Assembly (NCBI RefSeq): GCF_000003815.2
Contig: NC_049987.1
Span: 11,926,778 to 11,990,777, forward strand
DNA: 64,000 nt
Direction of reading: 5' to 3'
From: Branchiostoma floridae
Lineage: Eukaryota; Chordata; Leptocardii; Amphioxiformes; Branchiostomatidae
This document shows, one piece after another, positions 8,977-58,333 of the stretch. The position numbers and the translations under genes are program-made. The notes beneath the pieces were generated by a model that saw nothing but the letters and a program-made list of their open reading frames with translations, was not told the DNA's origin and did no database searches. Every line of letters starts with the position of its first letter. Within the stretch, counting starts at the first letter, position 1.

Positions 8977-9095
8977 AATAGTGTTGACTAGCTATAGGCA
9001 ATATGAAATTGTGTACCTGTATAGTTCCATGGATGTATAACTACTCACAGATTGTCCAAAGTCTTCCAATCTATGCATACCATACTGTCTGATTT

Positions 9096-13654: not shown

Positions 13655-15845
13655 CTAAAACCGTCTTGTTGACAAGATGTAAGTATGAAAAGCGGTCGAA
13701 AGACTTCTGTTTGTATTGTCGTCGTGACCCGGAGACCCGTTGAGTAGGAGGGTAGTGGAGAGGGGACGTTCCACGAGACGATGCACAGCTGTTGTGAGTG
13801 ACTGTCGTGCCGCTGTGTACAGTGAGCAATGAAGGAGGAAGTGTGCAACCGTCTCCGATGTTGCACCACAGGCGCATCTCCGAGTGGTGATGGTGAACTT
13901 GGCCAGCGTGGAATTCAGCTGACACCAGCCAAGACGGAGTCTGGTAGCAAGGATGTTGCTGCGGCGTTCACCAAACCTACGGTACTTCTGGTGATGACGG
14001 GCTGACAGCATGTGGTTTCTGCACTTCCGTTTGAACAGGTTAAAGGAGGTGGCTTCCTTCACTTCCTTCGGTAGACTGTTCCACAAACGAGTGGTGTACG
14101 GGACAAAGCTGTTCTTGTATGTGTTTGTTCTGGAGTGGGGAACATGCAAGTGTGTGTCGTTCCGAAGGCGTACATTTAGTTGTCTTTGACTGTTCCTAGT
14201 GGTGGGGATTAACGGCTGGAGATGAGGTGGAACAGAACCTGATGTCAGTTTGTACATAATCAGTAGTCTGTTGTGATCTCTCCTGGCTGCGAGGGTATCC
14301 CACTCTAGTTCGTCCAGTAATTTGGCATATGGTGTGCGCACCATCGCACCTGAGACAAGACGTCCCGCATGATACTGAACTTGTTCAAGAGACTTGCTGG
14401 CAGTGGTACCGATGTTGCTTAAAAGGATGGAAGCATATTCTAGCTTCGTGCGCACGAGGGTGTTGTAGGCAGTCTCCATGGCTTCACGAGGAAGCTTACT
14501 TTGGAGTTTGCTAAGCAGTCCTAGGACTTTCTTTGACTTGCTGGAGACCACTTCTGCGTGTTCCTTCCAGCGTAGTGAGAAGTGTAACGTAAGCCCTAGG
14601 TGGGTGTAACAGGTCACCTCTTCAACGAGCTCACCTGCTAAGTAAATGGGGGGTAGTTTGACTTTGCTTTGGAGTGCCTTAATGCACATGACCTTACACT
14701 TGTCGGGGTGTAACTGGAGCCCCCAGTCGTGGAACCAGTTGGAGACGAGGCGCAAGTCGGCATTGGTTGTGTTGGCGACCTCGAAGGCCGTGCGTCCAGA
14801 GTTATACAGTGAGGTGTCATCAGCGAAACAGTTTATGCTGGATTTGCAGGGAAGCTCTTGAATGTCGTTCAGGTAGATCAAGAACAGCAACGGTCCAAGA
14901 ATGCTTCCCTGTGGGACGCCAGCTGTTGTAGACCCCCATGAAGATCCCACGCCGTTGATAATCACACGTTGTTTCCGACCCGATAAGTAGTCGGAGAACC
15001 AGTTGGAGAGCGGGCCTTGGACTCCGTATCGCGACAGTTTGTAGATAAGGCCGTCGTGCCATACACTGTCGAAAGCGCGTCGCACGTCCAGGAATACCGC
15101 GGCGGTACAAGCAACATTTGGGTCATCTATGGACTTTGCCCAGTCATCAAGTAAACGTAGTAATTGTAGTACAGTCCCGTCACCCTTCTTGAAGCCAGAT
15201 TGTTTAGGGTTGAGTAAGCCGTTGTCCATGAGGTACGTGTAAAGTCTGTTGTGCACCAGTCTCTCCAGGACTTTGACGACCGTAGGCAGCAGGGCAATGG
15301 GCCTGTAGTTGTACGGGTCTGTCTTGTCCCCCTTCTTATGGACTGGTGAGATGTTAGACTGTTTCCACTCTGCAGGAAGGCGTCCGGTCGCGAGTGAGAA
15401 GTTGAATAACTCGCAGAGGGATGAACTGATTACTGGCGCTGCTTCCTTGAGAAGGCGGTTGGGTATACAGTCTGGACCGGGAGCTTTGTTGATGCGGAGA
15501 TCAGATAGGACGTTGTAGACCTCCTCTACCGACAGCTGTATGGAGCTGAGTTCATTGTTTGTGAACATCGGAAGTCTCTTAGTGTAGTCCGGGTGGTTAC
15601 TCTCCTTTGTGATTTGTACAAATATGTTGTTGAGAAGTTCAGCCTTGTCAATGTCCTTGTCGAGTGTCTCTCCCTGGCTTAGGAGTGCAGGGATACCCGT
15701 CCTTCCCTTCCCAGTTACTTTGTTTAGCACTGTCCACAGTAGTTTAGAGTCCTCTGGGGTCTTGATCCTGTCCCCGACACGAATAAGTAGGTCAAGGACA
15801 CTATTACTAGTAGGTGTGACTCTTGTATACTGTTGCTGAGCCTGA
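13655..15845 (-). CDS. LINE B ORF: reverse transcriptase part
   Basis: A CR1-like reverse transcriptase with NYRPIALLP, FLDVRRAFDSVWHDG, GVPQGSILGPLLFLIYLND and the catalytic FADD box (CFADDTSLY). It has a thumb region and a C-terminal CACGA...HFLLHC zinc-binding-like motif. The first Met is at 15730, but the frame is open upstream to about 15845, where it reads the end of the endonuclease. In that upstream part the endonuclease LDLLI motif is followed directly by the linker KTPEDSKLLWTVLNK. The usual SDH segment of the endonuclease is absent, an internal deletion. A 1-base shift near the contig end is probably a sequence error. Confidence 0.9.
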
Positions 15846-16370
15846 TACAGTCCAAACCTTCAACAATTTGAGNNNNNNNNNNNNNNNNNNNNNNNNNNNN
15901 NNNNNNNNNNNNNNNNNNNNNNNNNNNNNNNNNNNNNNNNNNNNNNNNNNNNNNNNNNNNNNNNNNNNNNNNGTGGTAATCCTTTGTTGAGGCGGAGATC
16001 AGATAGGACGTTGTAGACCTCCTCTACCGACAGCTGTATGGAGCTGAGTTCATTGTTTGTGAACATCGGAAGTCTCTTAGTGTAGTCCGGGTGGTTACTC
16101 TCCTTTGTGATTTGTACAAATATGTTGTTGAGAAGTTCAGCCTTGTCAATGTCCTTGTCGAGTGTCTCTCCCTGGCTTAGGAGTGCAGGGATACCCGTCC
16201 TTCCCTTCCCAGTTACTTTGTTTAGCACTGTCCACAGTAGTTTAGAGTCCTCTGGGGTCTTGATCCTGTCCCCGACAGAATAAGTAGGTCAAGGACACTA
16301 TTACTAGTAGGTGTGACTCTTGTATACTGTTGCTGAGCCTGATACAGTCCAAACCTTTCAACAATATCAG
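15484..16370. repeat. Direct duplication flanking the assembly gap (unmerged contig overlap)
   Basis: Bases 15484-15872 recur almost unchanged at 15982-16370 (offset 498, or 497 after a one-base deletion near 16278). The gap of 100 N lies between them. The few bases next to the gap on each side differ, as low-quality contig ends do. Joining the overlap would restore one continuous LINE B. This is very likely an assembly artefact, not biology. Confidence 0.85.
15873..15972. other. Assembly gap, 100 N
   Basis: Exactly 100 N, the conventional size for a gap of unknown length. Because its flanks overlap, the true gap size is probably negative. Confidence 0.99.
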
Positions 16371-16962
16371 CCAAAGAGAGTCCGTTGTTGTCGGTAAAAG
16401 CCCCGCCCCAGTCCGTGTTGTGACAATTAAAGTCACCAGTTATGATGATCTGTTTCTTTTCAGTAGCTGCCCTGGAGACACTCCATTCGAACTGTTCAAA
16501 GAAAATGTCAGTGGTGGAAGGAGGTCTGTAGATACAGGCAATAAGAAGTTTCTGTCCGGCAATCGATGTTTCAATCCAGAGGTCTTGCCATTGGCTGCTA
16601 CCTGCCTCTAGGTCTGGTCTGTGCTTACATGCCAGGGTATCACTGACGAGTAAGGCAACGCCACCCCCGATCTGTCCACTGCGGTCTTTCCTGAACATAG
16701 TTGAGAATCCTGAGATGTCAATGTCACTGTCCTGGATCGACTCATTAAGCCAAGTTTCGGTAAGTCCAAGGACAGAAATGTTTTCTTTATGCAGATGATG
16801 TTCCAGTTCATTTAGTTTTGCAGCGCCTTGGTCTGAATTTGGGTTGAGGCTTCGTACGTTTGTTGTCGCCACGGTCAGCTGATGCTGAGGGCCGGGATTC
16901 GGGCAGATGTCTCCGGCGAGAAGTAACAGACAAAAGTGCACAACCAGTACCAAAAACTTCAT
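16222..16962 (-). CDS. LINE B ORF: N-terminal leader with 2A-like motif, and endonuclease
   Basis: The frame opens with a hydrophobic leader (MKFLVLVVHFCLLLLAG) followed at once by DICPNPGP, close to the 2A consensus D-V/I-E-x-N-P-G-P. An apurinic-type endonuclease follows: VATTNVRSLNP, LTETWLN, ITGDFNCHNTDW and SNSVLDLLI. In this contig the frame shifts near 16278 by loss of one base and ends at 16222; the other contig end lacks this shift. The SDH part is missing in both. 2A-like sequences at ORF starts of APE-type non-LTR elements are known from lancelets and sea urchins. Here Glu is replaced by Cys, so ribosome skipping is uncertain. Confidence 0.85.
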   Translation of the reverse strand: MKFLVLVVHFCLLLLAGDICPNPGPQHQLTVATTNVRSLNPNSDQGAAKLNELEHHLHKENISVLGLTETWLNESIQDSDIDISGFSTMFRKDRSGQIGGGVALLVSDTLACKHRPDLEAGSSQWQDLWIETSIAGQKLLIACIYRPPSTTDIFFEQFEWSVSRAATEKKQIIITGDFNCHNTDWGGAFTDNNGLSLADIVERFGLYQAQQQYTRVTPTSNSVLDLLILSGTGSRPQRTLNYCGQC

Positions 16963-17549
16963 ATTGCAACTTCCTTGGCTAAGTCCAGGCTAGCGTGGCT
17001 AAAATCCAGGTGTTGGTATGGACTCTGGGGTACAGTAACTTGTTACACACATGTAAATCTAGATCTATTGCCCACTGACTTAATTTGCATATCAATACTA
17101 TGGAAGCAAGCTTCCAGCAGTTCATTGAAAAAAAACAGCGTATCTAAGGTGCGTATCTAAGTCAACAATTAAGCAAAAATACACGATCAAATATACACAC
17201 TATGTACAAGACAGGAAATTTCAAAAGCTCGCAACTAGGACGAGCAAAGAATAGTAAACTGACTAGTCGTACTCACGGCACTAGCGCTATGGCGGGCCGC
17301 CCTCCCCTTCAAGCTTCTCCCGGCAAACCAGACATTCAATTTCAGCTTTTACCAACAGGTCTACACATGTGAAGGCAAAGACTAGACTCAAACATGCCTC
17401 AGTAAGTTTTGAGACAGAGATGAGTCCACAGTTTATGAGTTTGAGATGAAAAAAAGGCTGGTTACCGCTGAGACCTTGGAAGGGTGGCTTCCCGAAGAGC
17501 TGACCTCTGACCTCATATCTGTTTTAACTGTTTTATCTGTTTTTATCCT
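16963..17549 (-). other. 5' untranslated region of LINE B
   Basis: About 590 nt between the LINE B start codon and the upstream target-site duplication. No ORF1 is recognisable, so this appears to be a one-ORF CR1-type element with a long leader, or one whose ORF1 has been lost. An internal Pol II promoter would be expected here but I cannot point to it. Confidence 0.5.
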
Positions 17550-18079
17550 CATTCTGTTTTAACGGGAGTGAAGGCCGGAGCCTTGTACATGTATATAGAC
17601 AGTATGTAGGGACTAATAACTGTAACGATGGCTTACAGAGTTCTTCTTAGATGTACGACGGTTTCTTCATTTATGAATGAGGTTCAGGCTTGCCAAGCAA
17701 TAAAGTCGGGTCACAGTGCAGCTAGGAAGAAAACGAAAAGGAAAACGTAGAGCAATTCCTGAACTTGAAAATGACATATGTGCACCTCTGATTCGTCAAC
17801 AGTCCACCTGTCCTGACCAGCAAGTTTGCCATCCAGCAGATTCTCCACCGCCACCAGCCGCTCCCTCAGTCCGGTATTCTCGGTCTGCAGGACTGATAAC
17901 TCCCGCCTCACACCTGTCAGCTCCTGCTGCATGTTGTGCACCACCACCACCCCCGTCAGCACGCTGATCCCGCACACCAGGGCGGCCAGGACGCCGACCA
18001 GCGGCCCGACCAACACGGGGAGACGGTCCCGACGGGCCGGTCCACCAGACAGGAACGGACTCTGCCTTTCCGCAGTCAT

Positions 18080-18868
18080 CTTTGCTTCCTCAGATGTTTT
18101 ACTGTTTTCCTTTATTCTTGATTAGCAAAATGTAGATCGCTCTTATTTCTTTATGGGCTAACTTTCCCCTACAGTGGAAAAAAACTGTGCGTAAACGTAT
18201 TCGATGGTTCGATTTTTTTATTTCCTACTTACAAAGACAAGCGGCAGCCGTTGTTTTATCCACACCTCAGTAAACCCTTCCCAGAATGCAATGTCGCTAA
18301 AAGGGACTTGCCCATTGATGACCTCGCCAGCAGAGCTTCTCATTGGCCAGAAATCATTCATGGACAATGATACATGTATTTTCATCTTACAGTTTTATAT
18401 TTGTGTGCCTTAGTGAACTACGTTCTGATAATATTCTTTGCAAAAAAGTTTGTTTGGGAGATTTACAAACGGTAACAGATAATTTACCAGTCACTTAATT
18501 CTTCCTTAGAATAAAACTTGGAAGAAAACTTGCCTGTTGGCCTCAAATGCAGCAAACTGCCTACTACATATTAAACTGATAAACTGACAAACCAACAAAC
18601 TGTTTTCCTCTCTATGGGTGTGATAAACATGAACGTCACTAGGTGGCGCTAGTAACGTTGCAAAAGTTTAGTGGCGAAAATAACTTTCTCTCATTCTTGA
18701 AACGGCTCTTGACTGCAGATTGTACAATGCGATGTCAAAAGAATGAATTGAATCATTTTGGATAAAATAGAGGGAAAGTCTTTCACAGAATGATGGATAA
18801 ATCAAAGATATCTTAAGTTTCGTATTTAGGGTCTCCGAATGAGCCGCTATGTTCAACACAAGTCCAAG
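18080..18868. promoter_or_regulatory. Head-to-head promoter interval between collagen copy 2 and CMSS1
   Basis: The minus-strand collagen start (18079) and the plus-strand CMSS1 start (18869) are 789 bp apart. The interval has a CCAAT box on the minus strand (ATTGG at 18342-18346) in the block shared with copy 1. It also has a ZNF143-like site. I see no TATA box. A shared or divergent promoter is inferred from spacing only. Confidence 0.45.
18278..18290 (+). promoter_or_regulatory. ZNF143/Staf-like motif
   Basis: TTCCCAGAATGCA matches the core of the ZNF143/Staf binding site, which is common at promoters of housekeeping and head-to-head genes in animals. It is placed about 590 bp from the CMSS1 start codon and 200 bp from the collagen start. 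Confidence 0.4.
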
Positions 18869-29400: not shown

Positions 29401-32400
29401 TCTCTATTTTTTTAGTTTATAGTCGCCATATAAAAGTCACTGTATATTTGTCGCGTCAGTAAAACTTCTATGAAGTCGTTCTCACCATATAATTCTACTG
29501 GCTATGATCCAGCGCGCAAACAAAGACAAGCCCCCGGACGAGACGCAGACTCCCCGGGGACCACACAATCCCATCATCGCGATGGAATTAGTAGGGAGTG
29601 AGCAAATATGATTACCGATCCCGCCTCGCTTCGTGATCGGGTTAGCGACCCCTGATTGACCTCATTTGACCTATGATGACAGATTGCTTATTATCAAGTC
29701 AACAGCGTCACATCTATTTCCACGCTTGGATGGCTGCGTTTGGTTTCAATTTAAATTGAAAGTTTTGTATCTATTATGCGTTTACGTACACTATTCTGTA
29801 GTAGCCTTCATCAGGCCTTTTTACTGGGGCGTGGATCGTAGAAAAGGGGAATAATTGGCCGAAAGTCAAACCGTGGAAAGGTTAAAGTTTCCTGCTATGG
29901 GGACTAAACTGTCCAACGAACCCTATACTGGCTATAGCCAGTGTAGGTAAGGTCCTTAGATGTTGGAACGAGAGTACGGAATCTCGTTCACAGGCTGGGA
30001 ATATCCCAGGGTTCAATTGTGCCGGTACCCGGATGTTGGTCTGTCACGATAGTCAGGGTGTCAAAAAACATAAGGCTTCCATTTATTGACTTGGTGACAG
30101 ATTATGCGAATTTTATCAAAGGCCTTGTATTGAAAGGAATATTATAAGTCATATCGCATTTAGCTAAGATACCACCTCACCCACACCCAAAAATCGAGTG
30201 GTCAAAGCGTCAAGTGGTCAAAGCGTCCTGAACAAAAAGTTCATTTATCAGCAATTCTATCTACAATATGACAAAAAGGCCGTATTCTAATTCTAATGGC
30301 ACAACCATTCGTTGTTTTTTTTTTTAAATTTGGTACGACAAAAAAATCAGGTATGGTGTAGAAATGAACAATGAAATATGGCCAGACACAGAGGGCCCAT
30401 TTTATTTTGGCTCACTATCGGGAATCGAACCAGGGTCGTTACGATCCGAGTCAATCGCGCGTCCCCTGATTGCCGAACCCCGAAATTAAACCGCTTTCCC
30501 GTTAATGTCGTCCGTGGAAATTGGGCCATTGACTCCGTTCCGAGGTCATCAGTCATCAGTGTATTACGACAGGCGGTTAACTGCTGGGTAGTGTCCATAA
30601 TTAGGACGTGAGTACGGTTAGATTGGTTTATATAAAATATGATGCATTACTCTAGAAATGACACACTCAGAAAACAGACTCTAGAAGTTAACAGCATAAC
30701 TGTCAACTTCGCCAGTAGGGAGCACGGCATTGTTTACATCATGGTTCAAAAATCGACTTTTCCGACCAGCGGAAGCTCATACCCATGTACACACTATGCA
30801 GCTGAAGTACGCACGATTATTTGTACATCTTCATCTACCTTTCTTTTAAATTTACTCTCAACATTGACAAAACAATTAATAGCTAGGTGTTCTGTGCTCA
30901 AGTAAGATTGATACCGTGCGCCCTTAATGGTCGCTAATTTCCTGTCGTCTCTTCACGATGATTATACATTTGTAGCTACAAATAAGAGAGAACGTATGGT
31001 GATAGACATGCTATTGGTATGACTTACCTGAATTCAATTCTGCTCTATATAACACAGTATTAGTGGTAGAGGAAGACGGCACTTACCCATCAAGTATACT
31101 TATTTCTGTCAGTTATCTAAAGGTTAGCGGAAGTACATTCATCTTCTGTTAGTGACAGCGCACAATCAATGGTGTGCTGTTCTCGTCCGGAGCAATTTGC
31201 TATTTTTAAAGATATAATCTCCTCATTTCACGCACTGTTGTCGTCTAAAGCCGGACTATGTGTTGATCTGACACGAGCCAAAAGGTTATTAACACTTTTA
31301 ATGATATATATGCAAAAGCTTAACCTCCAAGCAGATGTATGATGGTTTGTTGGTTAGTATCGTGCGTTTTTATACCGTAAATCTTGAAATGTTCGCCGTC
31401 GTTTTGGATTTGGGATGACCTGTCCACCATTAATTAACTCACGACACCGCAAATATGCGTTTTCCATGTATTGATACCGTAGAACGTATGAAAAATACCG
31501 AACACTTCGTGTACCTGAAGTTTAGGATAATCTTTAAGAAGCTCCGGGAACACTTCATCCACACTAAGAAGCGCCTCGAACAGCAAGACGTCTGCCATGG
31601 ACAGAGACCCGCCCACCAGGAAACCTGTGCCGTTGTCTTGGAGGACCTGGAAGACGTGAAGACATGTAGTTATCCTATATTCTTAAGAAATGTTTAGAAT
31701 GATCCGAATTCGCGCGTTTGACGTCATCTGCAGACGTTGAAATTGAGACAGATTAAATATAATTTAGCCCTCATCAACAGTACAATAAAATCATCACGCG
31801 CAAGTTAAGGAATATTCATATTCATTCTTATCGGTTACTAGAGATGGGACTGAGTGAGTATCGGTTGATCTGCAATAAATGGGTGAAACTATCTTCAAAT
31901 GCTTAATTTACAAATCATTTTAACTGATTGATTGCGAGGGCCAGCTTCTTGTAGTTCTACAGCTACAGTGACCTACACCATAGGAAATGCGCTAAACATA
32001 CTCTAAATCTCACGTACCTGAACATAGTTTGAACCTAAACATACTTAAAACGGAAATTTAACATATGCATGTAGTACTTTACCTATGACTATGAGGAATA
32101 TGCCTTCAAATATTCTCAGTCTCGCTACAGTTGTGTGTGATTATCTATGTCGGGACAATACTAGAAATACAGACACCGTTCGCCCTACATATTGGTATCT
32201 GATATTGGACTGGCCTGTTGGCTTCTGTCTGAGCATGATGACCACGGCATATTTTGCATCCGTTTCATCCCAGACGTAGATCAGGCCTGACAGGGCGGTA
32301 AGTGCCTGTGGCGGCACCGGGGCGGGCTGCTGCAGAATTTTCTATGAAGTTTCATTTGCACAACGTGACCAACATGACGAAAAGGCCAGAAACTCTTTCT

Positions 32401-35400: not shown

Positions 35401-38400
35401 CTTTGAAAACTTCGTTCCCAAGTTTGAGAGTTTGAGACCAGCTTGAGATTTTGCTCGCTGCTTAAGAACTAAATATGGCACACACACCATACACATGCTT
35501 CCCAATTCAGCCTCCAGAGTTTGTGAACACAAAGCATGTTGTTTGTTCCGAGGAATTTGCCGGTGAACTGTTCTAAAAGGAGTGCCCTGCACACCTGCTC
35601 AGCTCTGAACACGACACACCTCTTCCGTTATCAACCACGCGAAAACACAAATACAGTTTGGGTCAACCCTTGGGTCACGACTTCAGCAAACAAGGTGCTA
35701 CAGTACTGCTCCAAAAACAACTTGTGGAAATTTGTGTTCACAAAAATAAATCTTCTTCGTACAGGAAGCACAAACCCCGCTGAGGGCAGTGAGCGTGTAA
35801 ACAGTTTTGTTCCAAACTCTTGCTAGGCGCGGAATAAATGGGACTTTGCGTTGTACTTTCTTAGTTAGGAACGATGGCACAATGCATGGAGCAATCTACG
35901 AACAAGGGCTAGTCATCTGAAAACGACAACCAGTTTTGGTCTTGGCGTCTCGCTAAGTTTCAATGAAAAATAGCGTGTGTGGTTTATTTGCATGGATAAA
36001 GATCCTCCTCAAAAGAAAGGCTATCGTCATCGAAACAATAAAATACGGTATTGGACCTTCAATAGAAAGAATTCACAAAGCATATTAAGGCACAAGTTTC
36101 AAGAAGCAATTGAAAGACATTACTAATAGCTAATATCAATCTAGAAATGGGACTTTTAGCGAAATGTGTGGTTATGTTCATGAATATGTTATTTGATGTA
36201 AATCATAAAATCAATACAAACGTTCTCGTTATCATTTTATAAGCATATTATCGGACTCTGTTTTGAAGACATATTTTTCATGAATTTCCTTGCGTGGTGC
36301 ATGCAGTACGGAAATACCTGTTTGGAAAATGATACTGTAAAAGTGTTGAAAGCGGGTGATAGACACACACAAAGAAGGTGGCATTGAGGAAACATCAATT
36401 AAGAGTTGTAGGTGTGTCATGGTAACATTTACATTGTGTTTACACTTGGCCTACACATTGTTTACACATGGCTACCGCCTAACCCAACAACGTGACGTCA
36501 CTAAAACAATCATGCTGTACAGGATGTCTTTACCCATTTTTACACCTTAAAAGGACGCAAAAGGAGCCCCAAAATCCCCCTAAGTGGGGTTTACACCGTA
36601 GCCACGCCTACCTTATAATATATAAATATGGCCAAAACTCTCGTAAGATTTGTACCAGCGGGCCCCACGTGCACTTAAGACTGTGCTCCTGAACTACCCA
36701 CTTCTTGTTCTTTATTGTCGGCACTGTCTCAGACCCATTATGGCTACTCACAGGGTAATGTATTTCAGTCTTACGTTAAGTGTTCTAGTTCTACTTAGCC
36801 TCGCGGCTTGTAGTCCACGAGAACAAGTTGGCCGGGCGGTTGCTCGCTCGAGAAAACGTCACGTTAACACTCTGTCGAGACTGGTCGGTGGTGCGACGAA
36901 ACTGGCGGGGAAAGCGCTGGATGCAATGGTGAGGTTTGTTATTTTTAGAAGCAGCTTCGGTCGGTAAGCTAGTAGTGGCCGCGATTTTCTCTGTGTGTCT
37001 CCCTCCATGAAGACTAAACGAGTGGCGGCCACTACCTGCCCCCGACCAAAACCTATGCTTGGTGAATAGAGGTGTCACCATGTATGTTTTGAACTCATTA
37101 TTTGATTCATAGTCTGAAAATTCGCCCGTCCTTCAAACGTTTTGAGACACGATAGACAAATACCGTTGTGAAATGAAGTTCTGTACTTCTGCGTTGTTGT
37201 TTCCAGCAATCCCGCCACTATATAGAAGAGGCTACTCTGTGTGACTTCACCTTGAAATCGCTCCCGCGCGAGTCCAAAGTGTTCGCACAGGTAAGTAGCA
37301 TGCAGTTGCCATGTTAGGCAAAGTAAGGAGTGTTCTCACGTCAATATAAGCTATATGTTAGGAAATGCCGACCTTTGTTAGCGCTGAACTTTTAACTCAA
37401 TAGCTAGACACTTGGTACACAGTCTTTAACACGGCATTATGTGCTCTTACAACATAAGGAGAGTGGTAATTGGTGCCCAGTCTACAGCTAGATCATGTCT
37501 TTATCGTTATTTCTTGGCACGTCCTGATGGGCATGTATTACTATTTTTTGCACAAACGACATACTGAACTGAACTGAACTGAACATACTATGACCCTGAG
37601 CAACGCTATGATTCAAAGTGACCCCCATTAAGAAAATCCCTGTCTTTTATTTTAAGGGTGCAGACGTTCAGAGTCAGCTTACAGCCATTGTGGACACATT
37701 ACTGGCGTACGACAGCTTACTAAAGGCGGTGCGGTACGACGAGCTGACCCTGCAACACCTCAACACTGCCGGGGAGGTGGCCCGGGCTCGGGCAGCAGGC
37801 CAGGCCGTGCTGAGGCGGCTCCGACAAACGGTAGGTACCCATTCCTGGCGTAGTACAGTGGTTAGTGACTTTAACCGTCAAGATCAAGAGGGTTGGAAGT
37901 TCGAGTTCCTGCTCATTGAACATGTACGTATATACGTTAAGCCGTTCATTGAACATGTCGAAAAGAACTAATCGGTGGCAAAAAGACACTCCTTGGCCGG
38001 AAACACTCTTGGCCAGCTTATGATACTACCTTATGCCACCTGCTTGGAGATTATAGAAAAAAGCTGGGGGAATTTCCCCGATACGCTGCGCCTCCTCCAT
38101 CCGCGTGATATTCCTACCAGGAACTAGATACAATGAACCTGTAATTGCTCAACATTGTATCTGTCTCCTCTGTCGCGACCAACGGGCAATGCAAGAGTAG
38201 ATGTTCAGTGAGCTAAATTGGTTTGAGATCAGTTTCTGGTCTATTTTTCTTAACAATGGAGATTTTAACCTTCATTTGAAAGCCTGTTTTCCTGTACATC
38301 TTGGGGCGGTGTCCTACCTCCTGGCTTGATAATTTTTATGAGAGATGTTTGTAAAAAATTAAAAGATATCAAATAGCAAACTAGAGGCTCGATTAAAGCC

Positions 38401-41400
38401 ACCCTAGTCATAAAGGCAAACGCTTGCTTTCCTCTGAAATGCATGTTTGGGCAGTTCTACTAAGTCTTTGGTGAAATAAAATGATACCCTAAAATTGATC
38501 ATTATGCTCTCAGGCGAAGCAGGATATGCACTGTGACATCAGTTTCCATGACGACCAGATGACTACACCCTCGGCCGTACCCAGACCGCAGGACCGCCAA
38601 CTCCGGGCTGCCATGGTGATGTACAAGTACCGAGGGTTCTTAGGGAAACTGGGGGATTACGTCACAGGGCTGTGTATGACGTCATGTGGCAGGTGTGGGG
38701 AATAAGAGCCACTAAGAATCTCCAAGGAGATGTTGGGTGGGAAGGTCACGCTTTCTGGCTGTCATGTTTGACTGACACGTAGGGGGGAACTGTCCTTTCT
38801 TCCAACATCTGCTTGATGATTCTACCACCTACCTCTGTACGGGGAACCCAGGGGGTCATTCCCAGGCCTCCATTGGCATAGAAATGATTGGTGAAATATG
38901 ACATCTGCATTCACTGTGCATTGCCAGTATCTTATATTAAGACATGTAAATTGCCAGTGTTTTACTGAAAACCTATCTATATGTAGTTTTGTAAAGGAAA
39001 GTTTTTTACTCTCGGGTTCATTATAATGTAGCAGAGGTACATGTACTACATACGTGAAAATTACAACTGCTCTACATTATCTAATTTTTCTTCTTACTTG
39101 TCTGGTATATTTCGATCCTGGATGTATATCCAAACTTGAAAGCACACGCCTGGCAAGAAACGTACGTCTTTACAAGACAACTTTATCTTTTTTTATTTTA
39201 TTTATTCATCTATTTACCGGTTCGGCTGAAATATACGTCTGGTCTGTCCGCCTAGCCATTATCAAGACAGAGCGGTTATAGTGTGGTGGTCAGTTTTACG
39301 TTTTAATTCTTTACCTCATTATATGCAAAACGTATATTCAGACTTGTCGATGAACCAAAGGCAAGACATGTATTTCTTTATAAGATACTTAAGGTGTGTT
39401 GGTAGTGGAAATTAGCTACTGAGTTTTATATCATTGTATCCAGGAATCAAACTTGTCGATTGCAAGAAGATCTTTATTGTACATTTTCCTAACCATGCTT
39501 AGTACAGGTGACAACAAAGACATGTTTACATGTACACACATATCGGTATGTCACTCTTCGTAATGGTGAAAGTGTAGGATTGTATGTGTCTAGCAATATG
39601 TGATCTATCAAGATGAGATACTTGTATTATTTAACAGAGTTATGGTAGGGAAAAATTGATCATTCTTATCTTAATATTAATGTATCGGGGAATTATTATA
39701 TCTAAATATGTCAATGTAGTAATGACATGGAATGTACGTCTTCATAAGACACCCTCAACACCAGTGTCGTGTATTTAAGAAACATTGTCACATTATCAAG
39801 CATAGACTTAGATATATATGTATTAAGGTTTTTGTACGATATTTAGAATAAAGTTTTGGTACTCCTGGAAATAAACATATGTCGTTCCTGCATGGCATGC
39901 CTCGGTGACGTTATTCATATCATAGTCATTACTTATCTTCCTTAATCTAACTTAGACACAGTACGAACATCTGACAGGCTCTGTTGTTAACGTGTTCTCA
40001 AAAGCGCCACCTACAACGGGAATCGATAACTACAACCTATACGCACAACTCAATGGGACACAGTCCTGTATACAGTTCTTTCCAAGCAGAGGTTGGTAGG
40101 AAAATCGTGACCTTTTTCTTTCATCAATTGGTGGGAAGGCCAGTCGAAAAAAAAATGATGAAAGGAAAAGTTCACGATTTTTCCCACCAACCTTTGCTTG
40201 AAGAGTAGTACTAGTATACAGCACTTTGCTATGCCACTGTCAGTTGGGAATACATACACCTGAATATTTTCCCATATCCTTCAAGCATGAAATTTTACAA
40301 AATAGTTGTTAACCCTATTATTACATGTCCTTATCAGCCACAGCAAGCCTGTACTTAGTAAACATAATCTGATATCATCATCTCCCGGGAGATATGATTG
40401 GTTATAATCACAGCCAATCAAAATCCTTGTGTTAACTGAACCGCCCAGATCCGGTCTCATGAGAAATGTTTTCTTCTGATTACAACAACTTCAAATTTGT
40501 CAGTCGCTTTCCTATCAACAACATATCTGGAGTCTATTTTAATTTTTGATTGCAGCATATTCTAGTGGGAAATAGCCTACAGACTGGTTTTATAACGATT
40601 TGATTTGCGGGGTGGAGTGAGTCTGACGACATGAAGTTGCGGGTGAAGGGGGGCGCATCTTGCACTTTTTGTTCATAATTCTATTTTTGTGTGATTACTT
40701 ATATTGTGAAATATTTAGAAAACCATTGAAAGTCTATCTACAGCGTACTGACTGTAAAAAAAAACTTTGCCTCACATTCTGACATGAAAGCCATATGTGG
40801 AGCACAAATTACATCTATATTCATCTAGACGTGCAGTCATAGACTACTCTAAAGATTTAGAATGCATTAAAAATTTTACTGAAATAGAGAAGCATATCAC
40901 TAATACAAAGCAGACATAATGCTAGATTTAAGCAAAAATATCCTTTTAAATCATGGATTTGAATTACTTCCGCCACCCAAACTGTTAATCGTGGGCTACA
41001 AATCTAAACTGTCGGACCTCTGAGATCTCATTACTGTTAATGAACGGCTATTTTTCCGTCTCATTATTCTGCCAGCCGCCCTTATCGCGCAGAACCAACT
41101 GTTATGTTCCCATTGTCCCACTCTCTTTGCACAGGGGCACTCGAACTGTTTGGTAACAAGTAAAATATTGGGCGTACTTGTTAAGGGAGAGAATGGCCTC
41201 CGCAGCCTAATCGCTTTGTGTGCTCTTTCAGACGTACGCTAGTCGTAAGAAAGGGGGCTAGGAATACGGGGGCCGTCGCTATGGTGACGGGATGCGCGGA
41301 GTAAGTGAATTGGACACGCTGGTCTTTCATCAGTGAAGAAAACGGCTCCTCAGCACAACAAAGGGGACTCCTCGTCACAATCGGCTCGGCATTTGCCTGA

Positions 41401-44400
41401 GAAAGGGAGTTTCCCGCTGTTCGTTCCCCGTGAGCCAGGCGGCCATTGTAGACAGGCATCAATACCGTTTGCTACGCATACCCGATCCCTGAGGTACTAG
41501 GGACTGGTGGGATATTCACTGAGTTCACACGCCGTCAATAGTACCTTAATCAACAACAGTGCGACTTTAAGGAGAATTTTATTACGTCTTGGATTTTACT
41601 GACCTTGTCGTAGATCGGGAGGTAGCGGGGCAGGTCCTTGTCTCGGATCGTCGCCAGGAGCTCCGTCGGGTCCGACTGGAAAGGTATCCCGAGGAACTTC
41701 AGCTGGAAGTCACGGACACCATCCGCCAGCATATCAATCCTGGTGAGTACAGACAGGGATATAATAACTTGTCGTTATTTTGTGGAAGATTTAAGGTCTT
41801 CCACCACAACCGTTGTTTATGGTTCGCCGTGTTCGATAAGTTTGACATAATAGTAATACAGAAAATGTGTCACGTTAGATTTTATGGCAATGATAACAGT
41901 AAGGAAGGTTATTAAATCAGACTAACGTTAAAAAAATACTTAGTAGTACAAAGCATTCCTGTTTTGTTTCATAAAGGTGTGCACTTTTATCATCTTCTTT
42001 TTCTTCTGGGTGGAGTCAGTATCTATATGATATCTCTGATGTTGCAGGAATTTTAGTCTCTTGTTGTAGATAACAATCCTGCATATCCATCTCAAATTGA
42101 CAAGCTCAATCATTAATAAATACAAAAGGCATTTTCTTTGCATAAGAAGCTGCTTAATTCTTAATTGACTGACTCTTTGATGATTGATTGATCGATTCAT
42201 TATCTTAGTGGTTGGTTGATTAGCTGATAAATTGCTCTGGTAAATATTGCATTGATATCGCATATAACCAATGCTTGTGTTAAGCTTAACACTATTATTT
42301 GTCATATCAGTGATGTCAATACATTGCACTAGTGAGTTTAGCTTAAAGTTTATGTATGGAAGGGCGACAATGGTACATCGTTAGGCCTAGGAAAAGCAAC
42401 GTTGTGTTTCCATATACAGTCCTGAAGAAAAAGTCAGTAGGTAGGGATCCTCTTCTATTTTTTTTAGAGTTCGGCCGAAGTGAGTTCATTTTAGTTTAGA
42501 TATGGAAAACTGAATTGCTTCAGGACACTGTTATTTTTCAACAGTATATTTAAATCATACAGATAGACTAGATTCTATTATGTAGGGTGCCAACATAAAG
42601 GGACCAAGGTTTGGTGAGATGTTTGAATAATACCATCACAACCCCCTCCCCAACCCCAAAAAAGGCAGGGTTGGCAAGTTTTGGTAGGGTAGGTTGGGTA
42701 TACCCCATTGGTATATTCTATCTCTCTATATTATTATATTTACCCCCCACCCTTTCCTCATCCTCTCCAAAACACCCGTTTCATACTCCAATAGGTTAAG
42801 CGCATTACAAAAGCTGGGAGAACAATCGGCCAGGCGCACAATGAGCCCAGAGATTGAAAAGTCTCCCGGTTTTGTCCCGTCATCTGTGTGGCTTTCAGCA
42901 GCTTGTACCAGCCCAGCCGCAATATTGTGGAGAAGAGATTTAGTCAACAGATTGGCTTTAAATCATAGATGATGTAGTAATTCTGGGAGTACAGCGACCA
43001 CTATACAGACTGTACAAAATACGAGTAAGGCTAACGTCACATTTTCAAACCTGGACCCGACAGGGCTGTTTGTGAAAACGAAAATAGAAATGTAGACGTA
43101 AAAGTACACACAAATTATACCCACGACTTTCCTCTTTGCGTCTTTGCATATCATACTTTTCGTTCCGGAAAGATGCCCGGCCGGGACCCGGTTTGGAGAC
43201 GTGACGTAAGGCCTAAGATACTATTCTTAACTGCAGGACAGGCTACGGAGTGTGATAAACAAGAAATCTTTTTAAAAAAGCTGTGCCTTGCCGCGTGGTA
43301 GGAATATCGTCAGGAAAAGGTAGGTCGGCACTTCAAGCCCGGCAAGGCAAAATGCTGTGCCTTGGCGTGCAGTAAGGATAATTTGCTTGTCTGCTAAATA
43401 CGTATTATTAAAATTTTGACACTAGAAACCACGAAAATGAGAAAATCTTACGATTATATTTGAAAGGCAACACTCTGAAAATACAAATGGCATTCTGTGC
43501 CCATCATCAACCCAAAATACGATCTTTTTCACGTGCACGTGTTTACGGTATAGGCCGCATGTAGCCAGTCACAAGTATGCAAATGAGCTAACTATATTTA
43601 GTACCATGCAAACACCGCATGTGACCATGTTGGAACACGTTTTCAGCTGTGTTTGCCGACGAATTCCTGCCGTTAGGGAGAATTTGCGGCCTCAAAACTG
43701 ATATCACAAGTGAAGCGAAGTTATAGTTGTTGTTTTACTTTCATTATTTTGAAAGAACTTTGTAGCGTCATAGCGAGATCAACCGATATGTTTGGATGAC
43801 ATAGCGGCGCGGAAATATATGCTTCGACGGCGTGAATTTTGAGCAAAAATACCGCAGAATTATGGTTAGAAAACCCAAGGAGCTTTTATCCTTGGAAAAC
43901 CCCACATTTTATTATTTCAGGGGTCCCTGGTCCAATTTAAAAGAAATAATAAGTGTACCGTCCAAAATAAGAACGTAGCGGGTGGATTCTGCGGCTGAAA
44001 AAAATAAACGTAACTGTTACCTAAACATGCACTCTTGAAAATGCAGACCAAAAAGTCCCAAAGGTGGGTTTTCATGGTTCTGGTCGCATGACGAAAATAT
44101 TCTTATATCAAATGGATGTTATAAAAAGGTAAAAGGACAATTGAAAAAAAAAAACTTTCACTAGGCGGGTTCGAACCGGGGTCGGCAGTGTGGCGACTAT
44201 TCACGCTAACCACTACGCCATGCTAACATTCCCAGTACCACCTCGTATTAACAGGTATCCAAATCTAAGGCATAACTTGAATACGTCCGTTCATTCCAAG
44301 ATTCAAAGATTCTAATGTCTAATCCTCCGAAAAATGTCTAAACAACTGTTACTTATGTGAAAAGTTTGTAATGAGACGAGAGCCTGGCAAAATAATGTCG

Positions 44401-56400: not shown

Positions 56401-58333
56401 ATAGGGTCTGCCCGGTCTTTCAGAAAATTACATTCCGCGTATTCACGTGTTGAATATACATGGAGTTCCGCTGGAAAACGCACGGTAATGCAGTCTTATT
56501 AAGAAAGGTGCTGACACGTTACGAAGCTGCCATATTTGATTTGTTGTAGTCGCTTAGATTTAGTGAACTCAGACATTCATAAACGTTGAGACTAAAAACC
56601 ACCCTGGTGAAATGAATGAGAAAATCACAGTTTTTACTTAATCTATCTTAAATCAGTCAGATGAGATATTTTTCTAATATCGGGGCCAGTTAATTGAGAA
56701 GGAATTTTCGCCGCCAGCGCTGTCTGGAAATTCGAGGACACAAATCAAACGACGGAATGGTGCGGTTGCTAGGTAACGACGCCATATGTATTTCGGATGA
56801 CTGACGCACTGACGTTCCTCAAGATGCACTCACGCCGCGATGACGTACGATGGGTTTACGTCGAGCGACACCTTCTAACCCTTCTCTTCTCCCCGGAGAA
56901 CCCGCCTGGCCGTGACTGATTCCGTTATCATGCGGCATGTCCCGAGGTAGATCTCCGCAGTTCGGCCTGTAATCGTTCCGCGCCGTATTTATTGACGGTA
57001 TTTTATTTCAGTCAGTCATGTGGGTCCCAGCAGAGGTCAAGGATCACGTTCGATACCGCGATAAGCTGTAACAATTTAGTAACGTTACCACCCCTGTAGA
57101 GGGGGAGTGCTGCGTTCCAAATAAGACAAATGGGTGATTTCAAGTCTGGTCAGAGGGGAAGACAAGTCTGAGTACATATCGTCCCAGGAATTATTTCGTT
57201 TCATCACCCCTTATTTCATGTACTTACTCCCCAGTTGGTAAGGAAAACCCAACCGTCACCTTGACGGACGGCCCCACTTCCTAAACGGGGGGTGTAGGTG
57301 TGTAAACATGAACCTGAGGTAAGATTTATTTTGCAGACGATATTTTTGATTCGTCTCGCTCACCTGGCAGACTCCTTGTCGTCCCTGCCGAACAGGGATG
57401 CTTTGCGCGCGATGTAACGTAACATGGCGCCGGTCTGAACCATCTTCATCCCGTCTATCTCCAGCAGTGGTACCTGGAGGAAGAGGAGGTCTCCACCTGG
57501 AGGAGAGGAGAGGACATCAGTGAGCGCCGGGGGAGCAAACATTACGGTGAGCGTTTGGAATTTTCCCTCTAGCGTTTCTGGTAGGTAATGAACCCATGAG
57601 AAGCTCAGGGACCGTGGCGGAGCGCACCCTGCCCGGTGGGGTAGCATGAGTGGCGTGGTTTAATACATTCCAAATGTGCTACCGCTCGGGGCTCGTCGCC
57701 AAATAGAGGGGAGATTTTATCCCGGCCAGAATATCACAGCAGAACGGTACAACCAGACAGGACGTTTACGATTTCTGTGGGGAAACAACTAGTTTCTTAT
57801 ACTGGAGACTACAGTGTACTGGTTGTGGGATACTTAGCAAAGGCGCCCCCCGAATGCTGTGTCGTCGTGACCAGTAAGAGGACCGTGGTATCGGCGGTGG
57901 TGAGTTGGTTAATTGTATTGTAGCATACGGTCTATTGTAACGTTATATACAGTCTATGATAAGGCTTGGAGAATTTGATTAGACGCAATCTTTACGCAGA
58001 GAGATTAGCTTATGTCTGTGGTGGTGTGTTTAGGGAAAAAAAGTCTGTTGACAGTTGTTTTAGGGCCTCACGAGTAGCTCTCTCTCTCACACTCTTTCCC
58101 CGAGCCAGTAGCGTTGTTTTCAACCGTACCGTGACAGCCGGGGTCTGGGGTCAGCCTCCAGCCGCTGAAAAGCACAGCGGTGGCGCGGCTAATTTTGAAC
58201 CAAACGTCACCGTGTGGGCCACCTTAAACAATCGCTCTCGCCATGTTGAATCACTGAGAAGCCAACATTAATGCTACCTACGTGCTCTCAGCTCCTCCAT
58301 CTGCTCCTTAGTCTCCAGAAACACCTCATCGAA
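26443..58333 (-). CDS. Alpha-class glutathione S-transferase (N-terminal exon outside window)
   Basis: Five coding exons in transcript order: 58282-58333, 57364-57496, 41604-41739, 31515-31646, 26443-26565. All are GT-AG with matching phases (0, 1, 2, 0, 0) and give 191 residues. About 28 N-terminal residues, including the catalytic Tyr, must lie on an exon beyond 64000. Visible are [15 protein letters not shown] (cis-Pro loop and the Gln-Thr pair that binds the glutathione gamma-glutamyl group), AMLRYIARK, an all-helical C-terminal domain with [14 protein letters not shown], and the alpha-class-like end [10 protein letters not shown]. It conjugates glutathione to electrophiles as a cytosolic dimer. 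Introns are very long (0.8, 15.6, 10.0 and 4.9 kb). The 10 kb intron contains a complete gene on the other strand. Convergent with CMSS1. Confidence 0.9.
26701..26796. mobile_element. Short MITE with AGCCTG...CAGGCT ends
   Basis: Arms 26701-26742 and 26753-26796 pair over almost their whole length. The paired parts include GAGCTATAA/TTATAGCTC and CTCTTCTGT/ACAGAAGAG, with ends TAGCCTG and CAGGCTA. It is 96 bp long with no coding capacity. The terminal motif is shared with 46248-46377 and 54046-55238, so these probably use the same type of transposase. No clear target-site duplication. Confidence 0.65.
27780..27915. repeat. CCGCGAAC-rich repeat patch
   Basis: Several copies of CGCGAAC and its inverse GTTCGCGG within 130 bp, ending in AACTTAAATGCATTTACAGTA. 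A related end (ACCGTAAATCTTGAAATGTTCGCC) stands near 31373. It looks like a fragment of an inverted-repeat DNA element. Confidence 0.45.
30403..30480 (-). repeat. tRNA-like fragment (SINE or tRNA pseudogene)
   Basis: On the minus strand a perfect B box, GGTTCGATTCC, lies about 50 nt after a poor A-box-like GGCAATCAGGGG. Acceptor arms do not pair well, so not a functional tRNA; more likely a SINE head. Confidence 0.4.
32700..32899. mobile_element. MITE, 'CACATTTCCAAACC' family, copy 1
   Basis: About 200 bp. The left end reads TCACATTTCCAAACCGGGGC and the right end is its near inverse, with GTTTGGAAATGTGACG. Internal GGGAACGAAAAG is also shared with the other copies. No coding capacity. Three more copies lie at 43032, 48011 and 59713, all in GST introns or upstream of its first visible exon. 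Confidence 0.75.
33316..33477. mobile_element. MITE with ~37 bp terminal inverted repeats
   Basis: The left arm begins TATTGTGAACTTCAG and contains TATCCAAGCTTAGGA. The right arm contains TCCTAAGCTTGGATA and ends GGTTCACAATA. Arms pair over about 37 of 39 bases with a loop of about 85 bp. It is 162 bp and non-coding. TA at both outer ends would suit a Tc1/mariner-type origin, but this is not proven. Confidence 0.7.
34752..35107. mobile_element. hAT-like MITE with CAGGGCTCGAAATA ends
   Basis: CAGGGCTCGAAATA at 34752-34765 faces TATTTCGAGCCCCG at 35094-35107. CAGGG-type ends are typical of hAT elements. Both flanks contain TATAC, which may be a worn target-site duplication. Near both ends the motif ACCTGCAC or its inverse GTGCAGGT recurs about nine times, like subterminal transposase-binding repeats. 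It is 356 bp and non-coding. Confidence 0.65.
36493..36628 (+). promoter_or_regulatory. Promoter of the nested secreted-protein gene: CRE and TATA box
   Basis: A perfect CRE palindrome TGACGTCA lies at 36493-36500 and a TATA box TATAAATA at 36621-36628. The TATA box places transcription start near 36650, about 90 nt before the chosen ATG at 36740. A CACGTG E-box follows near 36666. This is a focused, inducible-type promoter, unlike the TATA-less CMSS1 start. Confidence 0.55.
36740..38705 (+). CDS. Secreted four-helix protein, candidate long-chain class I cytokine
   Basis: Four coding exons: 36740-36928, 37207-37290, 37657-37830, 38514-38705. All introns are GT-AG and phase 0, and the total is 212 codons plus stop. 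Residues 1-25 form a clear signal peptide. Basic RSRKR (36-40) may be a propeptide site. Predicted amphipathic segments: A about 42-74 (exons 1-2), B about 94-115 and C about 121-149 (exon 3), D about 176-202 (exon 4), with long A-B and C-D loops. Cysteines are at 75, 156, 203, 207 and 210. This matches the up-up-down-down layout and exon pattern of IL-6/G-CSF/CNTF-type cytokines, which have almost no sequence signature. I recognise no family by sequence. It could instead be another helical secreted hormone. It is nested in the 10 kb GST intron on the opposite strand. Start is at MATHRV because it begins the signal peptide. Confidence 0.7.
37987..38054. repeat. Dispersed repeat 'TGGCCAGCTTTGATACTA', copy 1
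   Basis: A segment of about 70 bp with CCTTGGCCGG, TGGCCAGCTT, GATACTACCTTATG and CTGCTTGGAGATTA. It matches 46949-47027 closely in the same order. It lies between exons 3 and 4 of the nested gene. Probably an old SINE-like repeat. Confidence 0.5.
38706..41603. other. 3' flank of the nested gene and remaining GST intron
   Basis: No further coding exon is seen. Several ATTTA/ATTTATT motifs (near 39190-39215, 39630, 39770) lie between the stop codon and the AATAAA signals at 39847-39852 and 39870-39875. If those are the true 3' end, the 3' UTR would be about 1.15 kb and AU-rich, as in many cytokine mRNAs. AT richness of the intron makes this weak. An inverted-repeat element lies at 40066-40221. 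Confidence 0.4.
40066..40221. mobile_element. MITE with ~60 bp imperfect inverted arms
   Basis: Outer ends are CTGTATAC and GTATACAG. The arms include AGGTTGGTAGGAAAATCGTGA and its near inverse, and CTTTCATCA facing TGATGAAAG. It is 156 bp with a small loop and no coding capacity. Confidence 0.65.
43032..43209. mobile_element. MITE, 'CACATTTCCAAACC' family, copy 2
   Basis: The left end is TAACGTCACATTTTCAAACC and the right end reads GGTTTGGAGACGTGACGTAA. ACTTTTCGTTCCGGAA inside matches the internal module of copy 1 on the other strand. About 178 bp, more diverged than copies 1 and 4. Confidence 0.65.
44163..44224 (-). repeat. tRNA-like fragment with good A and B boxes
   Basis: On the minus strand TGGCGTAGTGGTTAGCG (A box) and GGTTCGAACCC (B box) are spaced about as in a tRNA, and a T-run follows soon after. 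The T arm does not pair beyond three bases and the acceptor arm is poor. It is thus a tRNA pseudogene or a SINE head rather than a working tRNA. Confidence 0.45.
45404..45588. mobile_element. Inverted-repeat element, 'CTTCGCAGAC' family, copy 2
   Basis: The left arm has CCTTCGCAGAC and GATTTGCGATTTTCAACAGG. The right arm has their near inverses, CCTGTTCTGTGTTGAAAATC and GTCTGCGAAGG, ending AGGCTAA. It is about 185 bp, non-coding, and shares termini with 24115-24380. Confidence 0.6.
46248..46377. mobile_element. MITE with 33 bp arms, AGCCTGGGTACCATCCGG ends
   Basis: AGCCTGGGTACCATCCGG at 46248 continues as a 33-base arm, almost perfectly inverted at 46345-46377 (a few mismatches in the GGTAGTAG part). 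The element is 130 bp. The left terminus alone recurs near 29231 (TAGCCTGGGTACCATCC), a broken copy. Confidence 0.75.
46949..47027. repeat. Dispersed repeat 'TGGCCAGCTTTGATACTA', copy 2
   Basis: Collinear with 37987-38054: TTAGCCGG, TGGCCAGCTTTGATACTATC, TTATGGCACC and CTGCTTGGAGATTA, with a short insertion. A weaker third relative may lie near 49160-49200 (TTTGATACTGTCTTATG). Confidence 0.5.
48011..48198. mobile_element. MITE, 'CACATTTCCAAACC' family, copy 3 (degraded)
   Basis: The left end is CTCTCCAAACCGGGGCCCG. The right end has GCCCGGCCGGG and GGTTGGAAATGTAACC. It matches the family at both ends but with more changes than the other copies. Confidence 0.55.
53476..53530. repeat. Perfect 18 bp inverted repeat
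   Basis: TATCCAAAACAGTTCTTA (53476-53493) is exactly inverted at 53513-53530 with a 19 nt loop. A third, imperfect copy (ATCCAAAACAATTCTTG) follows near 53553. Remnant of a small inverted-repeat element. Confidence 0.65.
54046..55238. mobile_element. 1.2 kb foldback-type element with C-rich and G-rich ends
   Basis: Outer ends are AGCCTGGAGTCC (54046-54057) and inverted GGATTCCAGGCT (55227-55238). An inner pair is CCGGTGTGAC (54132-54141) and GTCACACCGG (55219-55228). The left part carries tandem GATCTCGCCCCCC / GGGGCGAAATCACTAGC modules, themselves palindromic, and a C14 run (54152-54165). The right part carries G12 (55165-55176) and GGGGGGCGAAAACGCTA modules. The middle is AT-rich, without a long open frame. 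It is a non-autonomous element sharing termini with the shorter AGCCTGG elements of this window. Confidence 0.65.
55733..56050. repeat. Tandem duplication, period about 157 bp, two copies
   Basis: Both units start GGGATTAC and share, among others, GAGTTATTAACGAAAGTAAG, GGTACCGATTTGCGG, GGGACCGTGCGTTCGG and CTAAATCTTCAGTACTTCAC. Unit 2 has small insertions in the middle. No open frame spans it. Confidence 0.8.
56154..56171 (+). repeat. Homopolymer G18
   Basis: An uninterrupted run of 18 G, preceded by a shorter G6 tract near 56133. It can form G-quadruplex and is prone to sequencing error. Confidence 0.9.
57497..58281. other. 0.8 kb GST intron, nothing seen
   Basis: Intron between the second and first visible GST exons. 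No repeat or exon recognised. Confidence 0.5.

What the first reader, a model, noticed from the sequence alone, without database searches (positions are those of the whole stretch)
36740..38705. Candidate invertebrate long-chain helical cytokine nested antisense in a GST intron
Seen: four GT-AG exons, all introns phase 0, 212 residues, signal peptide, four long amphipathic segments distributed A | A-end | B+C | D over the exons, long A-B and C-D loops, five cysteines outside the helices or at their ends. Established: IL-6/G-CSF/CNTF-type genes keep exon layout and phase-0 introns while sequence similarity vanishes, and such ligands are hard to find in invertebrates by search. Inference: this may be an unrecognised class I cytokine ligand. 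TATA box, CRE and ATTTA-rich downstream sequence fit an inducible gene.
Basis: partly seen in the sequence, partly recalled or inferred. Interest (0 to 1): 0.88.

Follow-up and report, generated by a model that had tools for sequence, protein, structure and literature searches.

The report
Likely lancelet helical cytokine gene
A small secreted-protein gene lies inside an intron of a detoxification-enzyme gene in a lancelet-like genome; it is very probably a real gene and looks like a member of the helical cytokine and hormone group (growth hormone, erythropoietin, interleukin-6), but its exact family is not settled.

Summary
In detail: four GT-AG exons, phase 0 throughout, 212 codons, hydrophobic N-terminus, opposite in strand to an alpha-class GST gene. 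Coding evidence is strong: the called frame scores best of six in 4 of 4 exons, and exons 3 and 4 exceed every stop-free null segment of their length. It is the only copy found in its 513-Mb assembly, whose size fits the Florida lancelet (recalled).

A class I cytokine is plausible, not proven. There is no Pfam or PDB sequence match. Exon 3 alone is predicted as two long helices. None of 24 helical controls and none of 60 exon-wise shuffles reached its mean similarity to 17 long-chain cytokines, but that depends on scoring parameters. The IL-6/G-CSF/CNTF assignment is not supported: the layout is that of short-chain class I genes (recalled). ATTTA is not enriched.

[quoted passage not shown] Whether this gene is that hormone's counterpart could not be decided. 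The spliced product's fold was not predicted.

The parts
36740..36928 (+). exon 1: start codon, signal peptide, basic N-terminal stretch with dibasic KR, putative helix A
   Evidence: called frame best of six, but score not unusual against null segments
37207..37290 (+). exon 2: end of helix A and A-B loop, Cys75
   Evidence: coding score reached by 178 of 9702 null segments
37657..37830 (+). exon 3: helices B and C
   Evidence: coding score beyond all 2129 null segments; AlphaFold2 on this exon alone gives helices 2-28 and 34-57, mean pLDDT 75
38514..38705 (+). exon 4: C-D loop, helix D, Cys-rich C-terminus (Cys203, 207, 210), stop codon
   Evidence: coding score beyond all 1629 null segments; AlphaFold2 on this exon alone: loop then helices 25-38 and 40-58, mean pLDDT 61
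36929..37206 (+). intron 1, GT-AG, phase 0
37291..37656 (+). intron 2, GT-AG, phase 0
37831..38513 (+). intron 3, GT-AG, phase 0
36621..36627 (+). TATA box (TATAAAT), about 115 bases before the start codon
   Evidence: pattern only
36493..36500 (+). CRE palindrome TGACGTCA
   Evidence: pattern only
57366..57494 (-). host gene: GST alpha-class N-terminal-domain exon
   Evidence: Pfam GST_N E 2.4e-4, just over the curated cut-off; 63% identical to human GSTA1
41601..41738 (-). host gene: probable GST middle exon ([11 protein letters not shown]...)
   Evidence: read by eye; no Pfam match for the frame 41550-41771; GSTP1 tblastn E 0.43
31512..31649 (-). host gene: GST C-terminal-domain exon
   Evidence: Pfam GST_C_3 E 2.2e-9; 39% identical to human GSTA1

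Best explanation
This is a real spliced gene, found once in its assembly, for a secreted protein of about 21 kDa (pI about 9.5) that most likely folds as a four-helix bundle of the class I helical cytokine/hormone superfamily, with long-chain-sized helices. It would be released from the cell and act by bringing together class I cytokine receptor chains and so starting JAK-STAT signalling. Shown here: gene structure, coding character, hydrophobic N-terminus (by eye), host GST gene, helices predicted in exons 3 and 4 taken singly. Inferred: cleavage and secretion, the up-up-down-down bundle, receptor binding and JAK-STAT. The subfamily (GH/PRL-like, EPO-like, IL-6-like or an ancestral branch) cannot be assigned.
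For: Gene model and coding evidence. Exon layout signal+A | AB loop | B+C | D with phase-0 introns; PMC2654155 (Discussion part 1 of 2 read) describes five-exon helical cytokine genes whose introns divide the helices in analogous positions and split no codon. Exon 3 alone is predicted as two helices of 27 and 24 residues with a short turn. Mean alignment z against 17 long-chain cytokines is 1.5 (BLOSUM45, 11/1): none of 25 reversed sequences and none of 7 short-chain or class II cytokines reached it, nor did any of 24 helical controls (12 non-cytokine proteins, forward and reversed) or any of 60 exon-wise shuffles; true long-chain members with their own family left out range from 0.08 to 2.15, and the candidate ranks fourth of 18. 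hhalign: none of 40 shuffles reaches its score against the IL-6/G-CSF/IL-23 profile, 2 of 40 for IL-6/G-CSF. In the best alignment with GH, Cys75, Cys203 and Cys210 fall on GH cysteines of the A-B loop and of the C-terminal loop.
Against: No Pfam match up to E 10 and no PDB sequence match. hhalign probability is about 1% or less for all nine profiles; for 5 of 9, 19 to 27 of 40 shuffles score as well, for IL-11 the reversed candidate scores higher, and for LIF/OSM 5 of 40 shuffles do as well. Pair by pair, z lies between 0.1 and 3.1 and the reversed candidate does as well or better for 5 of 17 references (control table). The group-similarity result weakens with other parameters: 2 of 17 and 3 of 17 reversed controls reach the candidate with BLOSUM45 14/2 and BLOSUM62 11/1, and with PAM250 its own reverse scores 1.23 against 1.82. 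No exon taken alone carries the signal. Helix D is glycine-rich and its prediction weak. The exon-anchored z for GH (1.2) is matched by its reversed control (1.1). No N-glycosylation site. No transcript, no second lancelet sequence and no full-length structure were available.
Confidence: 0.6

Rival explanations
1. A narrower form of the best explanation: it is the counterpart of the published amphioxus GH-like hormone (GHl, KJ735508, 208 residues), which is made in Hatschek's pit and acts through a GH-receptor-like protein.
For: Length 212 against 208. One of two open frames of the published ghl primer P19 (PMC5376476, passages) reads AVLRRGFA, and AVLRR stands at residues 141-145 here; a match of 5 or more residues arose in 26 of 5000 shuffles. 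Three cysteines line up with GH.
Against: The two-primer placement test is not significant (96 of 1000 shuffles as good; OSM, CLCF1 and IL-23A, which are not GHl, scored better and IL-12A equal). Neither primer has a match in the genome with up to 3 mismatches. The exact-match test was made after seeing the match. The GHl sequence itself could not be read.
Confidence: 0.2
2. It is a lancelet class II helical cytokine (IL-10/interferon type), which also has all-phase-0 introns.
For: No-split-codon exon structure is shared with the IL-10 family, IL-3, IL-21 and IFNL1 (PMC2654155). z against IL-22 is 2.3.
Against: Those genes have five exons, not four; z against IL-10 is 0.5; four rather than six helices are apparent (by eye).
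Confidence: 0.1
3. It is a secreted helical protein unrelated to cytokines (lineage-specific peptide precursor or immune effector); the cytokine resemblance is convergent.
For: No database match; parameter-dependent similarity; hhalign near chance for most profiles; basic N-terminus with a dibasic KR, as in peptide precursors.
Against: Exon-to-helix layout; none of 24 helical controls reached its group similarity.
Confidence: 0.28
4. The gene model is an artefact of chance open frames and splice-like sites, or a pseudogene.
For: Exon 1 shows no unusual codon bias.
Against: The called frame is best of six in 4 of 4 exons, exons 3 and 4 lie beyond all null segments, and 0 of 5000 simulations reach its synonymous codon score.
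Confidence: 0.04

Closest known systems
Amphioxus GH-like hormone (GHl, KJ735508)
   Same: lancelet; about 210 residues; type-I helical cytokine with low identity to vertebrate members (PMC9010856, sections 4 and 9)
   Different: sequence not available here; primer matches inconclusive; its gene structure was not found in the passages read
GH/PRL family (PF00103)
   Same: size; B+C and D exon lengths (55 and 65 residues in GH against 58 and 63; GH lengths recalled); Cys75/203/210 align with GH cysteines
   Different: the helix D cysteine of GH has no counterpart; GH genes have five coding exons with a phase-1 first intron (recalled); no Pfam match
EPO/TPO (PF00758)
   Same: exon lengths of AB loop and B+C (29 and 60 residues against 28 and 58; EPO lengths recalled); last-exon z 3.1
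   Different: five coding exons in EPO (recalled); total z 1.5 only; no Pfam match
IL-6/G-CSF/IL-23 group (PF00489, PF16647, PF16649)
   Same: B+C exon best matches IL-6 (z 3.6); hhalign score reached by none of 40 shuffles
   Different: five coding exons with phase-1 first intron (recalled); G-CSF total z -0.8; hhalign probability about 1%; no Pfam match
Short-chain class I genes IL-2, IL-4, IL-5, GM-CSF
   Same: four exons, three phase-0 introns, signal+A | AB | B+C | D (recalled)
   Different: helices of about 15 residues (recalled) against 24 and 27 in exon 3 here; sequence z from -1.2 to 1.0

Membership tests
class I helical cytokine, long-chain | about 160-210 residues with a hydrophobic signal peptide | tested here: met
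   212 residues, hydrophobic stretch about 7-23 (by eye); cleavage itself not tested
class I helical cytokine, long-chain | four-helix bundle, up-up-down-down | not tested
   the spliced product was not handed to structure prediction, whose stated rule takes proteins given letter for letter by the DNA; exons 3 and 4 were folded singly
class I helical cytokine, long-chain | long helices (about 25 residues) | tested here: inconclusive
   exon 3: 27 and 24 residues, pLDDT 75; helix D weak, pLDDT 61; helix A not folded
class I helical cytokine, long-chain | sequence or profile match to a known family | tested here: not met
   none in Pfam or PDB at E up to 10; hhalign probability about 1% or less
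class I helical cytokine, long-chain | binds class I receptor and activates JAK-STAT | not testable with these tools
   needs a binding or reporter assay
IL-6/G-CSF/CNTF subfamily | five coding exons with first intron in the signal peptide (IL-6, G-CSF), or two exons (CNTF); recalled | tested here: not met
   four exons, no intron in the signal peptide
GH/PRL family | Hormone_1 profile match | tested here: not met
   a genome search with PF00103 gave one sub-threshold hit elsewhere, with two stops inside
GH/PRL family | two disulfides, AB loop to helix D and C-terminal loop | tested here: inconclusive
   three of four cysteines have a counterpart in one alignment; the helix D one is absent
class II helical cytokine (IL-10 type) | five exons, no split codons | tested here: not met
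   four exons, though no split codons; criterion from PMC2654155

The most novel reading that the evidence does not exclude
The gene is an unreported lancelet class I cytokine, distinct from GHl, that keeps an ancestral gene form: the four-exon, all-phase-0 layout now seen in short-chain interleukins together with long-chain-sized helices. It would then descend from before the short-chain and long-chain class I cytokines separated.
Probability: 0.2. Interest if true: 0.8.

Novelty: new member of a known kind. Interest (0 to 1): 0.5.

Why it matters
Class I cytokine receptors, JAK and STAT reach far back in animals, while their helical ligands are little known outside vertebrates; a BLAST-based survey of 18 metazoan phyla or subphyla found IL-6 only in vertebrates (PMC13203501, abstract and passages). 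Helical cytokines lose detectable sequence similarity, so gene layout and fold are used to recognise them (PMC2654155). A confirmed lancelet ligand would give a point of comparison for how growth hormone, erythropoietin and the interleukins arose, and a concrete partner to test against the lancelet receptors.

Tried and rejected
Tried: Pfam and PDB sequence search of the product (nothing). Viral-contig search for relatives (one pattern match, no relative). Genome searches with Hormone_1 (one hit, C12, E 0.08, two stops inside), IL6 (one hit, C5, E 3.5) and EPO_TPO (none); the two hits were read and judged chance by their E-values and, for the first, its stops. The control genomes of all three searches rang nowhere, so absence is not shown. 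Own-genome protein search: four hits, the four exons themselves. Rfam on the window: no match at gathering scores. A bacterial promoter pattern scan says nothing about an animal gene and is not used.

Rejected: ATTTA-rich 3' region as sign of an inducible transcript. The IL-6/CNTF exon-layout argument (see verdict). A synteny idea (human CLCF1 lies near GSTP1; recalled) was dropped because the host GST is closest to alpha class; the two marker searches for it did not complete.

Inconclusive: link to GHl through published primers.

My early impression that the exon 2/3 border lies at exactly the same residue as in GH was wrong by two residues (note, checked).

The first coding test used only 16 of 30 kinase loci, because minus-strand loci were read on the wrong strand; it was redone with 28 of 30 and a G+C-matched null, with the same outcome.
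Full report
What is there. The window is part of a 513,431,437-base, 431-contig assembly (contig C9, 11,926,778-11,990,777). The size fits the published Branchiostoma floridae assembly (recalled); no call names the organism. A TATAAAT box lies about 115 bases upstream of the start and a CRE palindrome at 36493. The start codon has A at -3 and G at +4 (sequence).

Is it a gene. Codon log-odds were taken from 28 of 30 protein-kinase exons fetched from the same genome (L022 and L028 dropped for stops; 7165 codons). A first run used only 16 of 30 because minus-strand loci were read on the wrong strand; the outcome was the same. In 4 of 4 exons the called frame scores best of six. Of stop-free segments of equal length from surrounding DNA taken as non-coding (overlapping, hence not independent), none of 2129 reach exon 3, none of 1629 exon 4, 178 of 9702 exon 2 and 266 of 1629 exon 1; among segments matched for G+C the counts are 0 of 95, 0 of 257, 51 of 2119 and 121 of 313. 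On synonymous choice alone 0 of 5000 simulations reach the coding sequence. Exons have 56% G+C together, introns 40-45%. Chance or decay is therefore unlikely. A protein search of the whole assembly returned only these four exons at E up to 10, so no close paralogue and no second copy was found.

Surroundings. On the - strand a GST gene spans the locus: a GST_N exon at 57.4 kb and a GST_C exon at 31.5 kb, closest of four human GSTs to alpha-class GSTA1 (63% and 39%). A third frame at about 41.7 kb reads like the GST middle exon but has no Pfam match. The new gene lies between 41.6 and 31.65 kb, antisense to it.

What the protein is. Pfam and the PDB sequences give nothing up to E 10, as expected for a fast-evolving helical cytokine but also for any orphan protein. 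Exon 3 alone, folded without an alignment, gives two helices of 27 and 24 residues with a short turn (pLDDT 75, pTM 0.43); exon 4 gives 24 loop residues followed by helices 25-38 and 40-58 (pLDDT 61, pTM 0.28). These would be the B+C and CD-loop+D parts of a helical cytokine.

Sequence tests. Exon-anchored alignment with recalled exon borders gives total z of 2.2 for IL-6, 1.5 for EPO, 1.2 for GH and -0.8 for G-CSF; reversed controls give -0.1, -0.1, 1.1 and -0.5, so the GH value means nothing; true cross-family pairs range from -2.2 (GH/IL-6) to 5.8 (IL-6/G-CSF). hhalign: none of 40 shuffles reaches the candidate for the IL-6/G-CSF/IL-23 profile, 2 of 40 for IL-6/G-CSF, 3 of 40 for IL-11 (where the reversed candidate does better), 5 of 40 for LIF/OSM, and 19 to 27 of 40 for the other five; probability is about 1% or less throughout. 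Mean z against 17 long-chain cytokines is 1.5; none of 25 reversed sequences and none of 7 short-chain or class II cytokines reached it, nor any of 24 helical controls or 60 exon-wise shuffles. It ranks fourth of 18 among long-chain sequences scored with their own family left out. With other scoring parameters 2 of 17 and 3 of 17 reversed controls reach the candidate, with two settings 0 of 17, and no exon taken alone carries the signal. I take this as moderate support for the superfamily and none for a subfamily.

Gene layout. Those genes, as I recall them, have five coding exons with a phase-1 intron in the signal peptide, or two exons. Four exons with three phase-0 introns, signal and helix A together, is the layout of IL-2, IL-4, IL-5 and GM-CSF (recalled). 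The IL-10 family has five exons without split codons (PMC2654155, Discussion part 1 of 2 read). So this gene combines a short-chain-type layout with long-chain-sized helices. Either an intron in the signal peptide was lost or it was never gained; the second would make the layout ancestral. This is inference.

What is already in print. PMC9010856 (sections 4 and 9 read; [quoted passage not shown] the parts read do not list them. The 2014 paper on GHl is not held. PMC13203501 (abstract and passages) found IL-6 only in vertebrates. Of PMC5376476, PMC9049855, PMC12409108, PMC7308720 and PMC4929537 I saw passages. Eight literature searches listed no paper whose title or abstract start points to this locus; the longer lists were capped, and most subscription papers are not held. 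Whether the present gene is GHl could not be decided: a primer-derived peptide gives a five-residue match (26 of 5000 shuffles as good, tested after the match was seen), the paired test is not significant (96 of 1000), and the primers have no genomic match within three mismatches.

Mechanism. Most likely the protein is secreted, cleaved near residues 22-24 (possibly again at the KR at 39-40), held by disulfides among Cys75, 156, 203, 207 and 210, and brings class I receptors together to start JAK-STAT signalling. Only gene structure, coding character and the helices predicted in single exons are shown; the rest is inferred from the superfamily.

Verdict.

Noticed in passing
window 973-1536, 9722-10216 (-); 2874-3281, 17714-18121 (-): Two copies each of a Cys-rich frame (GGTNYQCLPT...) and of a frame with a membrane-anchor-like stretch followed by a coiled-coil-like one (by eye): may be tandem transmembrane collagen-type genes; no Pfam match for the four frames at E up to 0.01.
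   Followed up: partly
window 5128-8991 (-) and 13658-16989 (-): Long frames that read like non-LTR retrotransposon proteins (by eye); the second is interrupted by a run of N near 15.9 kb and repeats part of itself on the other side of the gap, which suggests an assembly problem there.
   Followed up: no
window 38677: A second perfect CRE palindrome TGACGTCA lies inside exon 4 of the gene.
   Followed up: no
window 40101-40181: An inverted repeat with 29-base arms, 90% complementary, 23 bases apart, like a small foldback element, between the gene and the GST middle exon.
   Followed up: partly
window 36845-36859 (residues 36-40, exon 1): RSRKR with a dibasic KR just before putative helix A: possible prohormone-convertase site, so the mature N-terminus may start at residue 41 (for the letters).
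   Followed up: no
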